The notes below the pieces were generated by a model. That model was not told the origin of the DNA. It did no database searches and worked only from the letters and a program-made list of their open reading frames with translations. A stretch of DNA of 5,535 nucleotides, from assembly GCA_913009285.1 (NCBI GenBank), contig CAJVYE010000092.1, positions 1 through 5,535 on the forward strand, written 5' to 3'. This DNA is from an uncultured Nitrospirota bacterium (GTDB lineage Bacteria > Nitrospinota > Nitrospinia > SZUA-224). This document shows, piece after piece, positions 1,920 to 3,869 of this stretch; the first letter of the stretch is position 1, and each line of letters opens with the position of its first letter. The position numbers and the translations under genes are program-made.

Positions 1920-2062
1920 TATAGATTTTCAGATAATAAATTACAATAGGCTATAACGAGAAATCCGTGGTAGCCGCAGGTTTTAGCCTGCTTAGACCGA
2001 ATGGTACGTCGTCGAGGATTTCGACTGATAACGTAGTATAATTTGTTATATGGAAATATATA
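1920..2062 (+). repeat. MITE-like intergenic repeat, copy A
   Basis: A 143-bp unit matching, in opposite orientation, copy B at 3726-3869. The left end TATAGATTTTCAGATAATAA (from 1920) and the right end (2039-2062, read in reverse) form an imperfect 24-bp terminal inverted repeat. Blocks shared with B include 23 identical bases at the left end, GGCTATAACGA (1949-1959), and a perfectly identical 30-base block at 2004-2033. The shared block contains a small GTCGA/TCGAC stem (2011-2015 with 2021-2025). The central stem is shorter here (GCAGG at 1976-1980 with CCTGC at 1986-1990). Ends carrying TA on both sides would fit an IS630/Tc1-like non-autonomous element, which is inference. It stops seven bases before the xerC ribosome site. 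Confidence 0.7.
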
Positions 2063-2068
2063 GGTGGA

Positions 2069-2073
2069 AGAGG
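2069..2073 (+). promoter_or_regulatory. ribosome binding site for xerC (TTG start)
   Basis: AGAGG lies 8 bases before TTG 2082. The earlier in-frame GTG at 2064 has only AT-rich repeat sequence upstream, and the ATG at 2074 is out of frame. The site therefore selects TTG 2082. Confidence 0.55.
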
Positions 2074-2081
2074 ATGGTTGT

Positions 2082-3002
2082 TTGAAGAGATATACAGATG
2101 AATTTGAAAGATATCTTGAGATCGAAAGGGGGGCATCACAACATACTATTACGAGCTACCTGAACGATCTTAGACAGTTTTGTGATTTCCTCAGGGAGAG
2201 TGGATTATGTGTGAGGGATAGCGATTCAGATATTGATATAAAGCAGATAGATAATGTTATTATACGTACATTTCTGGGGTACCTTCATAAGAAGAAGATG
2301 AGGAGTGGCTCGATGGCAAGGAAGCTTGCTACCCTGAGGACCTTTTTCAAATTTCTCTGCCGTGAGGGTTATATAGAGAAGAATTATGCTAAAGTGGTTG
2401 CAACCCCCAAGGTGGAGAAGAGGATCCCTTCATTTCTCCCGGTGGATGAGATTTTTCAGTTACTGGAGATCCCTGACCAGCGGACATTTTTAGGTATGAG
2501 GGACAGGGCTATCCTTGAGATATTCTATGCGACTGGTATACGTGTGAGTGAACTTGTCTCCCTCAATTATGATGATGTGAATCAGGAAGTTCGCTTTATT
2601 AAGGTAAAGGGAAAAGGGAATAAGGAGAGAATAGTCCCTTTCGGGAAAAAGGCTGCAAAGGCACTCAAGGGATATCTGGAGAAATTAAAGGAGATAAAAA
2701 GAATCAAGCATTGGGATATCGATCAAAATGGAATATTCTTAAATCGAAATGGTGGAAGATTGACTGTCAGGGGTGTACGCAAGATAGTGGATAAGCATGT
2801 AAGAAAGAGTGCCATAGTTCGTCGTATAAGTCCTCATTCCCTTCGTCATACCCTTGCTACCCATCTTTTGGATGGAGGGGCAGACCTGAGGGTGATACAG
2901 GAACTCCTTGGACATGTAAGTCTATCTACAACTCAGAAATATACCCATGTCACTACTGATAGATTGATGGAGGTATATGATAAGGCGCATCCAAGGGCAT
3001 AA
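2082..3002 (+). CDS. xerC: tyrosine recombinase XerC (CodV-like)
   Basis: A site-specific tyrosine recombinase of 306 residues that, with XerD, resolves chromosome dimers at the dif site. Numbering from TTG 2082, the N-terminal SAM-like DNA-binding domain covers about 1-95 (FERYLEIERGASQHTITSYL near the start) and the catalytic domain about 115-300. The full catalytic set is visible: R154 (ATGIRVSEL), K178 (VKGKGNKER), H252 and R255 (SPHSLRH), H278 (LLGH) and the nucleophile Y287 (TTQKYTHV). Length and motifs fit XerC/XerD rather than a phage integrase. Position directly before hslV-hslU matches the codV-clpQ-clpY order of Bacillus subtilis, which favours XerC; XerD cannot be fully excluded from motifs alone. 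Starting at GTG 2064 would add six residues without family support. Repeat copy A lies just upstream and a 167-bp palindrome lies between it and hslV. Confidence 0.9.
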   Translation: MKRYTDEFERYLEIERGASQHTITSYLNDLRQFCDFLRESGLCVRDSDSDIDIKQIDNVIIRTFLGYLHKKKMRSGSMARKLATLRTFFKFLCREGYIEKNYAKVVATPKVEKRIPSFLPVDEIFQLLEIPDQRTFLGMRDRAILEIFYATGIRVSELVSLNYDDVNQEVRFIKVKGKGNKERIVPFGKKAAKALKGYLEKLKEIKRIKHWDIDQNGIFLNRNGGRLTVRGVRKIVDKHVRKSAIVRRISPHSLRHTLATHLLDGGADLRVIQELLGHVSLSTTQKYTHVTTDRLMEVYDKAHPRA

Positions 3003-3015
3003 AAGAGAGGTAATA

Positions 3016-3182
3016 GTTCAAATTGAATTCAGAAAGATATTTATTTAATTATCGATTAAAGTGCCTAAAGTTTGAAGTGTCTAAAGTTATTGAATTATTT
3101 TTTATATTAAAAATTCGAATTCCTTAACTTTAGGCACTTTAGACACTCTTTAAAAGAATAACTCACTGAAATCACTTTGAAC
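3016..3182. repeat. long imperfect palindrome between xerC and hslV
   Basis: The ends are a 17-base inverted repeat: GTTCAAATTGAATTCAG at 3016-3032 against its reverse at 3166-3182, 15 of 17 matching. Inside, AGTGTCTAAAGTTA (3076-3089) pairs with TAACTTTAGGCACT (3125-3138). An outer TAAAGTGCCTAAAG (3057-3070) pairs with the segment at 3136-3152. The motif AGTGYCTAAAGT is thus present four times, twice per arm. The loop is AT-rich (3097-3117). I see no coding potential and no clear flanking duplication. It may be a non-autonomous mobile element or a folded leader, and it ends five bases before the hslV ribosome site. Confidence 0.6.
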
Positions 3183-3202
3183 TTACAAAGGGAGAAAGAG
3201 TA

Positions 3203-3730
3203 ATGTTTCATGGAACAACAATAATTTCTGTAAGGCATAAGGGAAAGGTTGCTATCGCTGGTGATGGACAGGTCAGCATGGGCGATACAGTAATGAAGCA
3301 TAATGCCAAGAAGGTAAGGAGAATATATAGGGATAGTATAATTGCTGGATTTGCTGGTGCTACAGCAGATGCCTTTGCCTTATTCGCAAAGTTAGAGGAA
3401 AAATTAGAGAAACATCAGGGAATTCTTCCCAGGGCAGCGGTGGAGCTGGCAAAGGACTGGCGGACTGATAAGTTACTACGGCGACTAGAGGCACTCCTAG
3501 CAGTGGTTGATAAGGAGCACTCTCTGATCATCTCTGGTACAGGGGATGTGATTGAGCCCGATGATGGTATAATAGGTATAGGATCAGGGGGACCTTATGC
3601 CATTGCTGCAGCAAGGGCCATGATCTCTCATTCAGATTTGGATGCCTATACTATTGTTGAAGAGGCTATGAAGATTGCCTCTTCAATCTGTATATATACA
3701 AATGATCAAATTATGATTGAGGAGTTATAG
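3203..3730 (+). CDS. hslV: ATP-dependent protease peptidase subunit HslV (ClpQ)
   Basis: The proteolytic subunit of the cytoplasmic HslUV protease: two stacked hexameric rings whose N-terminal threonines cut unfolded proteins fed in by HslU. The protein is 175 residues, standard for the family. A short propeptide MFHG precedes TTI, so T5 becomes the nucleophilic Thr1 after processing. D21 (GDGQV) and K37 (HNAKKVRR) sit at the positions of the conserved active-site D17 and K33. Other hallmarks are AGFAGATADAFALF (48-61), AVELAKDWRTDKLLRRLEAL (79-98), GSGGPYA and the ICIYTND near the end. The start is secure: AAAGGGAG at 3187-3194 lies 8 bases before the ATG. It is followed by hslU after 153 bases, an unusually long gap for a pair that is often nearly adjacent, because repeat copy B lies between them. 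The TAG stop (3728-3730) is inside the end of that repeat, although the C-terminus (IEEL) looks normal. Confidence 0.97.
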   Translation: MFHGTTIISVRHKGKVAIAGDGQVSMGDTVMKHNAKKVRRIYRDSIIAGFAGATADAFALFAKLEEKLEKHQGILPRAAVELAKDWRTDKLLRRLEALLAVVDKEHSLIISGTGDVIEPDDGIIGIGSGGPYAIAAARAMISHSDLDAYTIVEEAMKIASSICIYTNDQIMIEEL

Positions 3731-3869
3731 ATTTCCAAATAACAAATTACACTGCGTTATCAGTCGAAATCCTCGACGACGTACCTCTCAGTAGGGGGCA
3801 GGCGTAAAACCTGCCCCTACAAGGATTTTTCGTTATAGCCTGGTGAAATTTATTATCTGAAAATCTATA
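3726..3869 (-). repeat. MITE-like intergenic repeat, copy B
   Basis: A 144-bp unit, inverted relative to copy A. The two ends form a 24-bp terminal inverted repeat matching at 20 positions, with the outer nine bases (TATAGATTT at 3726-3734, AAATCTATA at 3861-3869) perfect. The 30-base block at 3755-3784 is the exact reverse complement of 2004-2033 in copy A. The centre is a strong GC-rich stem, GTAGGGGGCAGG (3791-3802) with CCTGCCCCTAC (3810-3820), with one bulged G. The left end includes the hslV stop codon and the right end stops two bases before the hslU Shine-Dalgarno. No open reading frame of note is present. A mobile, non-autonomous origin is inferred from the two copies and inverted ends. 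Confidence 0.72.
3791..3830 (+). terminator. possible attenuator hairpin between hslV and hslU
   Basis: The GC-rich stem at the centre of repeat copy B (3791-3802 with 3810-3820, 7-base loop) is followed after five bases by TTTTT at 3826-3830. In hslV mRNA this could act as a partial intrinsic terminator or an mRNA-stabilising stem. The T run is short and set back from the stem, so strong termination is doubtful. Confidence 0.3.

What the first reader, a model, noticed from the sequence alone, without database searches (positions are those of the whole stretch)
1920..3869. Two inverted copies of one MITE-like repeat flank xerC-hslV
Copies at 1920-2062 and 3726-3869 share 23-base and 30-base identical blocks, matching terminal inverted repeats and the same internal layout, but lie in opposite orientation. 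The pattern is of conserved ends and a fixed inner block around a variable central stem. That suggests a defined mobile or structured family rather than random similarity. As inverted repeats they could also support inversion of xerC-hslV, notable beside a recombinase gene.
Basis: partly seen in the sequence, partly recalled or inferred. Interest (0 to 1): 0.7.

Follow-up and report, generated by a model that had tools for sequence, protein, structure and literature searches.

The report
Mobile hairpin family with swappable parts
The two inverted repeats around xerC and hslV are copies of one small DNA element, predicted to fold into a hairpin and likely moved in trans by an IS630-type transposase, whose core is shared by bacteria of different phyla while its ends and its centre vary from genome to genome.

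Summary
In detail: 1920-2062 and 3726-3869 are oppositely oriented copies of one family, with exact 23- and 31-base shared blocks. It is a dispersed miniature inverted-repeat element. The window's incomplete genome has it at 23 places (15 near full length); a same-genus genome has 151 left ends. 142 copies show discrete ends (TAGATTT...AAATCTA) and a 2-bp, mostly TA, duplication. Copy 2 is absent from a same-genus genome; in the window the element's first bases now serve as the hslV stop codon. Movement by an IS630-type transposase is inferred: target, duplication and some relatives' ends fit, but no transposase gene with the same ends was found. (2) The 'variable central stem' is a separate GTAG-headed REP family nested in the element; it differs between orthologous copies. 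(3) xerC-hslV-hslU keep one orientation in three genomes, so inversion is not supported. This is a new family of a known kind, with an unusual modular build.

The parts
1920..2062 (+). Copy 1 of the element, with its flanking TA at each end (1920-1921, 2061-2062). Canonical orientation, same strand as xerC. Present at the same place and orientation in G001, and probably in G002 (left flank alike only).
1922..1946 (+). Copy 1, left terminal inverted repeat TAGATTTTCAGATAATAAATTACAA
2036..2060 (-). Copy 1, right terminal inverted repeat (ends ...GGAAATATA)
1970..1991 (+). REP-like hairpin GTAGCCGCAGGTTTTAGCCTGC nested in the middle of copy 1
   Evidence: G000:C92:1970-1991
2003..2033 (+). Conserved inner block (right half of the hairpin core), identical to copy 2 over 31 bases
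3726..3869 (-). Copy 2 of the element, with its flanking TA at each end (3726-3727, 3868-3869). Opposite orientation, between hslV and hslU. Absent from same-genus G001.
3728..3752 (+). Copy 2, terminal inverted repeat TAGATTTCCAAATAACAAATTACAC
3843..3867 (-). Copy 2, other terminal inverted repeat (TAGATTTTCAGATAATAAATTTCAC on the - strand)
3755..3785 (-). Conserved inner block of copy 2
3798..3820 (-). REP-like hairpin GTAGGGGCAGGTTTTACGCCTGC nested in copy 2
   Evidence: G000:C92:3798-3820
3728..3730 (+). hslV stop codon TAG = first three bases of the element's terminal repeat
   Evidence: the G001 junction without element has CTA TAA
2064..3002 (+). xerC (tyrosine recombinase XerC); start may be GTG 2064 or TTG 2082
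   Evidence: TIGR02224, over cut-off
3203..3730 (+). hslV
3884..5302 (+). hslU (listed from TTG 3878; ATG at 3884)
   Evidence: TIGR00390

Best explanation
The two repeats are copies of one dispersed miniature inverted-repeat element that is likely cut out and pasted at TA dinucleotides in trans by an IS630-type transposase. Shown: 25-bp terminal inverted repeats with sharp ends, mostly TA flanks, many copies, and a same-genus genome that lacks copy 2 at a near-exact empty site. Predicted, with covariation in support: one hairpin over the whole element, with a core shared by relatives in another phylum. Shown: a separate REP family (GTAG head plus palindrome) sits in the middle of a number of copies in the window's genome. 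Inferred: the transposase is of the IS630 type and is missing from the assembled part of this genome. Inferred: the REP entered the element after the element had inserted, by REP mobility or by exchange between copies. Inferred: copies are kept mostly between genes because insertions inside genes are lost; at hslV the TATAG end restored a stop codon. Lying inside a likely operon, they would be transcribed as long hairpins; RNase III-type processing, as reported for Correia elements, is plausible and untested here. The inverted arrangement around xerC-hslV is most likely a by-product of two independent insertions.
For: Copies: 23 distinct places in G000, 15 of at least 110 bases; left-end pattern 8, 6 and 151 times in the three same-genus genomes, 0 in reversed controls. 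Ends: 142 distinct full copies in L001-L177, 112 of length 121, 124 starting TAGATTT and 124 ending AAATCTA; identical flanking dinucleotides in 114 of 142 against a shuffle mean of 98.0 (max 105 of 500), longer identical flanks rare; the base before prefers C/A, the base after G/T. Junction without copy 2 in G001. Hairpin: 47 pairs, 90.6% of cells paired against 30-44% when slid. IS630 link: 10 of 58 ends of 29 diverse elements match at 17 or more of 22 positions beyond TATAG one of three IS630-type ends, null mean 0.003; the matched IS has an NF033545 IS630 hit at E 4e-73. REP: 37 matches to a GTAG-headed palindrome pattern in G000, 0 in the reversed control; 7 of the 37 lie inside element places. 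Intergenic: 3 of 127 copies inside ORFs of 90 aa or more, against 1686 of 2300 random positions.
Against: No IS630-type gene with TAGATTTTCAGATAAT ends was found: DDE_3 has no match in G000, G001 and G002, and the DDE_3 loci found elsewhere have other inverted repeats or none detected. The own genome is only 58.9% complete, so absence there is weak. The IS630-end comparison was set up after the likeness had been noticed, and used the ends of two ISs (L178, L180) of the four loci in which an inverted repeat was found; the strong matches are to one IS, L178. The G001 junction differs from the expected target by about 3 bases (TATAATTGAGG against TATTGAGG), so exact insertion there is not proved. 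The G002 copy upstream of xerC matches on the left flank only.
Confidence: 0.8

Rival explanations
1. The element is primarily a structured RNA (or single-stranded DNA) module under selection for its hairpin core, and the transposon-like ends are only its vehicle.
For: Core keeps 0.79 identity between elements with different ends while the ends fall to 0.66; core helix of columns 36-54/83-100 is 91.6% paired with 5 of 12 pairs changed on both sides; three internal loops keep GA opposite GA in 24, 22 and 24 of 29; core in 42 of 389 genomes of another class.
Against: The one search set was found with the core as query, so core similarity is enriched. Over all 29 elements column identity is nearly the same for ends and core (0.856 and 0.872), and within the larger sort the ends are the more alike (0.833 against 0.79). 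RNAalifold's own consensus leaves columns 26-38 and 86-98 unpaired, so two of the three GA loops rest on short helices that it does not predict. The number of further pair types is not above shuffles (69 and 284 of 500 reach it). No clear strand preference between co-directional genes (38 sense, 24 antisense, p 0.098). No Rfam match at gathering thresholds. Covariation in a palindrome can also come from copying one arm onto the other.
Confidence: 0.25
2. The pair is an inversion switch for xerC-hslV worked by XerC or by homologous recombination.
For: Two inverted copies of about 140 bp flank the segment, one gene of which is xerC.
Against: Same gene order and orientation in G000, G001 and G002; copy 2 absent in G001; in G002 the three copies in this locus all point the same way. 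An inversion would split hslV from hslU.
Confidence: 0.03
3. The repeats are REP/BIME-type palindromes spread by a RAYT-like tyrosine transposase rather than an IS630-type MITE.
For: REP-like hairpins lie inside both copies, and Y1_Tnp matches exist in the genome.
Against: The element has long terminal repeats and a 2-bp duplication, occurs without the REP in G002 and in the other-phylum copies read, and 30 of 37 REP-pattern matches in G000 lie outside the element places.
Confidence: 0.07
4. Assembly artefact or chance similarity.
For: Illumina-adapter-like sequence near both ends of the contig shows that this assembly has errors.
Against: The same family, with the same ends, occurs in other assemblies; copy 1 is at the same place in another assembly.
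Confidence: 0.01

Closest known systems
RUP (repeat unit of pneumococcus), proposed to be mobilised by IS630-Spn1 (PMC2229807, passages read)
   Same: 107 bp, intergenic, high copy, TA target, ends like those of an IS630 element.
   Different: No sequence comparison made; ends are 25 bp here; relatives in another phylum; shared hairpin core; REP nested in the middle; partner transposase with the same ends not found.
Correia / NEMIS elements of Neisseria (PMC2229807 and PMC10969869, passages read)
   Same: About 107 or 155 bp, TA at the ends, 24-bp terminal repeats, long hairpin, two size classes that differ by an internal insert. The TATAG start of Correia ends is recalled, not checked.
   Different: Different hosts and insert; no sequence comparison made; promoter and RNase III functions are untested here.
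ERIC elements of enterobacteria (PMC2229807 and PMC10969869, passages read)
   Same: Small, mostly intergenic, TA at the ends, long stem loop.
   Different: Different hosts; contiguous terminal repeat of ERIC is listed as 7 bp; no sequence comparison made.
REP / RAYT system (PMC2817692, passages read)
   Same: The central stem has the GTAG head plus short palindrome and occurs as close inverted pairs elsewhere in the genome.
   Different: Here it is nested inside another mobile element; the cognate RAYT was not identified.

Membership tests
MITE | Short (<200 bp), without a gene of its own, dispersed in many copies | tested here: met
   Mostly 121-148 bp; 23 places in G000, 151 left ends in G002; only short ORFs on the other strand, without support, overlap the copies in the window
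MITE | Terminal inverted repeats with discrete ends | tested here: met
   124 of 142 start TAGATTT, 124 of 142 end AAATCTA
MITE | Target duplication and empty sites | tested here: met
   2-bp match 114 of 142 vs shuffle max 105 of 500; junction without the element in G001, near-exact
IS630/Tc1-type MITE | TA target duplicated | tested here: met
   105 of 142 TA/TA, 5 TG/TG
IS630/Tc1-type MITE | Ends match those of an autonomous IS630 element | tested here: inconclusive
   Not for the window's own ends; yes for relatives with the same core but other ends
IS630/Tc1-type MITE | Mobilised by that transposase | not testable with these tools
   Needs an assay
RUP or Correia family proper | Sequence membership | not tested
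   No sequence of these was aligned; likeness is by build only
REP (central stem) | GT(A/G)G head plus palindrome, many copies, inverted pairs | tested here: met
   37 matches in G000, 53 in G001, 0 in reversed controls; inverted pairs 30 bp apart at C6, C66, C120 of G000
REP (central stem) | Cognate RAYT gene flanked by two such REPs | tested here: inconclusive
   Three Y1_Tnp matches in G000; one REP 353 bases beyond that at C23, no flanking pair seen
Invertible segment | Both orientations seen | tested here: not met
   One orientation in 3 of 3 genomes

The most novel reading that the evidence does not exclude
The real unit of inheritance is the hairpin core: a folded module with conserved paired G-A mismatches that travels between phyla, takes on whichever IS630-type ends the local transposase recognises, and accepts other mobile hairpins (REP, a second MITE) at its tip. 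It would be a modular mobile element whose inside is conserved and whose ends are exchanged.
Probability: 0.25. Interest if true: 0.75.

Novelty: new variant of a known kind. Interest (0 to 1): 0.5.

Why it matters
MITEs are usually thought of as IS ends around arbitrary filler (general knowledge), so a family whose inside can outlast a change of its ends would need a different account. The window's genus gives a tractable case: orthologous copies with different centres, a junction without the element, and a relative with over 150 left ends. It also shows how an insertion between hslV and hslU is tolerated, with the element's first bases supplying a stop codon. For most readers it is chiefly a new, widespread repeat family; a number of contigs of the richest genome break inside it.

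Tried and rejected
None of the loci had ends like the window's. Contigs that break inside the element (L074, L099, L147, L153, L162) looked at first like element ends attached to a gene; searches show a second MITE-like repeat nested there instead, so that lead was dropped.

The apparent 11-base duplication beside copy 2 (ATTGAGGAGTT) was first taken for a long target duplication. The G001 junction already has both halves in similar form, and no duplication longer than 2 bp is general, so it was rejected.

A count mended: one search gave 148 full copies, but some near-palindromes had been read on both strands. A recount on the same loci that drops copies already read on the other strand gives 142; its numbers replace those everywhere here, and the conclusion is unchanged. 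The 32 rows are likewise 23 places.

No match to a 125-base G002 copy in plasmids or phages at E 0.01, nor of an exact TIR pattern in viral contigs; no Rfam match at gathering thresholds in the window or for the element in six loci. Papers: full-text searches with MITE/IS630/Nitrospinota/Desulfo terms listed nothing on this family, judged from listings only; the 21-base core string is in no held paper. These do not prove that it is unpublished.

Dropped rows: leave out copies within 20 bases of a locus end, truncated copies and duplicates; one search leaves 48 of 127 copies unclassified because an ORF is lacking on one side; A1 and A2 were thinned to 21 and 29 rows by identity. In A1 the row L045 is misframed at its left end. 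The 102-bp form was left out of A1 and A2. One search scored at most two candidates a genome, so its counts of copies are lower bounds.
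Full report
What is there. The window carries a partial pfkB-like gene, a second pfkB-family gene (909-1868), xerC (2064-3002), hslV (3203-3730) and hslU (to 5302), all on the + strand. Copies of one repeat lie upstream of xerC (1920-2062) and between hslV and hslU (3726-3869), in opposite orientation. They share 23- and 31-base identical blocks and align at 86%. Both fold far better than shuffles.

A family with sharp ends. In the window's own genome (1.51 Mb in 304 contigs, 58.9% complete) a search with copy 2 gives 32 match rows at E<=1e-3; merged, these are 23 places, 15 of them at least 110 bases long. 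In same-genus genomes the left-end pattern occurs 6 times (G001) and 151 times (G002) against 8 in G000, with 0 in reversed controls. Of the 77 genomes searched of this phylum these 3 alone have it. That pattern does not catch other sorts of ends: G007, of the same class, has one core match (where 4 of 60 genomes match: these three and G007). By record title and contig lengths G002 is the MAG NC_groundwater_1751 labelled Nitrospinota and G001 is SZUA-224 labelled Nitrospirae; these are submitters' labels. Among 142 distinct full copies in L001-L177, 112 are 121 bases from TAGATTT to AAATCTA. The flanking dinucleotides are identical in 114 of 142, against a shuffle mean of 98.0 and maximum of 105 in 500. 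TA/TA makes 105 of these, TG/TG 5. Longer identical flanks are rare (4 of 142 at 3 bases, 0 at 8 or 11). The base before TA is mostly C or A, the base after it mostly G or T.

Empty site and shared site. In G001 the hslV-hslU junction has no element...GAAGAGCTATAATTGAGGAGTTGAAGATGG. The window reads ...GAGGAGTTA[TAGATTT...AAATCTA]TATTGAGGAGTTGAAGATGG. The match of flanks is close but not perfect, so the exact ancestral site is inferred. The element begins TATAG, so insertion at this TA leaves the element's own TAG as the hslV stop codon, and HslV ends at the same residue as in G001. Copy 1 is at the same place and in the same orientation in G001; G002 has a copy there too, with only the left flank alike. 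G002 has two further copies, between xerC and hslV and about 15 bases after the hslV stop codon. Gene order and orientation are the same in all three, so inversion of xerC-hslV has no support.

The central stem is a second mobile repeat. A pattern for the stem (GTAG, two G/C bases, GCAGG, 4-8 bases, CCTGC) matches 37 times in G000, 53 in G001 and 8 in G002, with 0 in reversed controls. The GTAGCC form is common in G000 and G001 and absent from the 8 matches in G002. Inverted pairs 30 bases apart occur at C6, C66 and C120 of G000. Of the 37 in G000, 7 lie in element places. This fits the description of REP sequences: GT(A/G)G head, palindrome, paired arrangement (PMC2817692, passages read). Most copies in G002, and those of the other phylum that were read, are 121 bp (or 102 bp) and lack it. 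At the copy-1 site G000 has a GTAGCC stem, G001 a doubled GTAGGGG stem and G002 none. So the centre most likely changed after the element had inserted. Whether this came about by REP mobility or by exchange between copies is not shown. Y1_Tnp (RAYT-type) matches are present in G000 (3), but no gene flanked by this REP was found.

Another nesting. In G002 a different inverted-repeat element, estimated at about 160 bp (ends GGCACTRCGCAGAAATAA), lies in the same central place; its right junction with the element is seen in five loci with different flanks (L074, L099, L147, L153, L162) and its left junction in two (L111, L146), while L126 has it without the element. The composite seems to have spread as a unit; this is inferred from identical junctions with different flanks.

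The core is found with different ends. Five of these other genomes were searched for the left end with up to 3 mismatches: 4 of 5 have it (7, 77, 33 and 72 times; 0 in reversed controls). A 76-base core query taken from G061 finds 42 of 389 genomes of its class, G061 itself included. Since only 3 genomes of the window's phylum have these ends, this class lies outside that phylum. Among the 30 loci read, the ends that are intact are mostly of two sorts, TTCAGATAATTAATTTCAC and TTCAGATAATGATTTTGGC; several have a truncated or degenerate end. L033, from G007, is of the second sort. Seven of the 29 rows of A2 are of the second sort. Between the sorts the ends (outer 5 columns left out) are 0.66 identical and the core 0.79; within the first sort they are 0.83 and 0.79, within the second 0.83 and 0.83. 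Over all rows column identity is nearly equal, 0.856 for ends and 0.872 for core. So the core is not more conserved in general; it stays alike across a change of ends. The set was found by core similarity, which favours a conserved core.

The IS630 link. An IS630-family gene in G060 (371 aa, NF033545 246 bits, cut-off 100) has ends TATAGCTTTTAAGAAAAACATTTTGGGG and TATAGACCTTACGAAAAAGATTTTGGGG. Ten of 58 ends of the 29 elements match one of three IS630-type ends at 17 or more of 22 positions after TATAG; shuffled ends give a mean of 0.003 and reach 17 in 1 of 300 rounds. The comparison was set up after the likeness had been seen, with two ISs (L178, L180) of four loci that showed an inverted repeat, and the strong matches are to L178. 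L180 in G007 has DDE_3 at 48.5 bits but is below the NCBIfam IS630 cut-off (87.9 against 100). The window's own type of end was found on no IS. By eye, the IS subterminal regions read do not resemble the core, so the core does not look like a remnant of these two ISs.

Structure. In 21 diverse elements the whole element fits one hairpin of 47 pairs, 90.6% of cells paired (shuffles 87.0%; 30-44% when slid), with 12 pairs changed on both sides against 7.2 in shuffles (1 of 500 reaches it); the number of further pair types is not above shuffles (69 of 500). RNAalifold's own consensus has 36 pairs and leaves columns 26-38 and 86-98 unpaired. In 29 elements the core alone is 82.1% paired (shuffles 80.2%), with 9 such pairs against 5.3 (6 of 500 shuffles reach it) and no excess of pair types (284 of 500). 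Its middle helix is 91.6% paired with 5 of 12 pairs changed on both sides, while the outermost three pairs are only 57.5% paired. The ends show the stronger covariation (13 of 24 pairs), as expected if one transposase binds both. Three 2x2 internal loops have GA facing GA in 24, 22 and 24 of 29; 16 of 29 have all three. Two of these loops rest on the short helices that RNAalifold leaves out. Copying of one arm onto the other could make such covariation without any function, but would be expected to remove the mismatches. The GA conservation is therefore the most suggestive sign of selection. It is not proof.

Context. Of 127 copies in L063-L177, 3 lie inside ORFs of 90 aa or more (random positions 1686 of 2300), 48 lack an ORF on one side, and the rest lie between co-directional (62), divergent (12) or convergent (2) ORFs; background pairs in the same loci are 308, 38 and 50 (p 0.017). 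The convergent deficit is modest. Sense and antisense copies do not differ clearly (38 and 24, p 0.098), which speaks against a strand-specific RNA role.

Verdict. The closest known kinds are RUP (IS630-Spn1), Correia and ERIC (passages in PMC2229807 and PMC10969869). It most likely works like them: a transposase-dependent, TA-targeting, mostly intergenic hairpin. It is not shown to belong to any of them. The new points are the cross-phylum core, the change of ends, and nested REP and MITE-like inserts in one central place. The paper searches showed no description of it; they cover only openly licensed text and were judged from listings.

Noticed in passing
window 22-53 and 5379-5450: Sequence that looks like Illumina adapters (recalled motif) with an index and poly-A near the window's end: the contig has adapter contamination and probably false joins. 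The same motif is seen near ends of other G000 contigs (L016, L018) and in L061.
   Followed up: partly
window 3015-3183: A further imperfect inverted repeat between xerC and hslV, in a gap of about 45 bases in G001; probably another mobile element. Short pieces match elsewhere in fetched loci.
   Followed up: partly
window 656-890: Another repeat with inverted ends (near AAGCGTTCACAGAACACTGAAATTTGAAATTGG), with pieces in L007, L060, L263 and also in Deltaproteobacterial L104 and in L226.
   Followed up: partly
L126 about 5187-5322; L111, L146, L153: Second MITE-like family (estimated 160 bp, ends GGCACTRCGCAGAAATAA) in G002, with 5 match rows in G000; nested in the main element at one fixed place.
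   Followed up: partly
L101, L112, L146, L076, L039: Solitary left ends that stop at or within a base or two of ...AAATTACACAA with unrelated sequence after: possible remnants of excision or one-ended events.
   Followed up: no
L099, L146, L163: A 23-base hairpin (TAGAGCACTATTACAGTGCTCTA) inserted within the left terminal repeat of some G002 copies.
   Followed up: no
L033 1616-1712, - strand: DUF3800-V RNA (RF02964, 69.8 bits) right beside the element copy in G007.
   Followed up: no
L076 (NC_groundwater_1759, labelled Nitrospirae): Contig with an element, whose name points to the same sample as NC_groundwater_1751; may be a misbinned contig.
   Followed up: no
L061 498-842 and flanks: Y1_Tnp gene surrounded by other repeats (CCCTGAAAGGGTTACAT, GCCCAGGGTCAGCGAAGCGCCACCCTGGG), which may be its own cognate REPs.
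   Followed up: no
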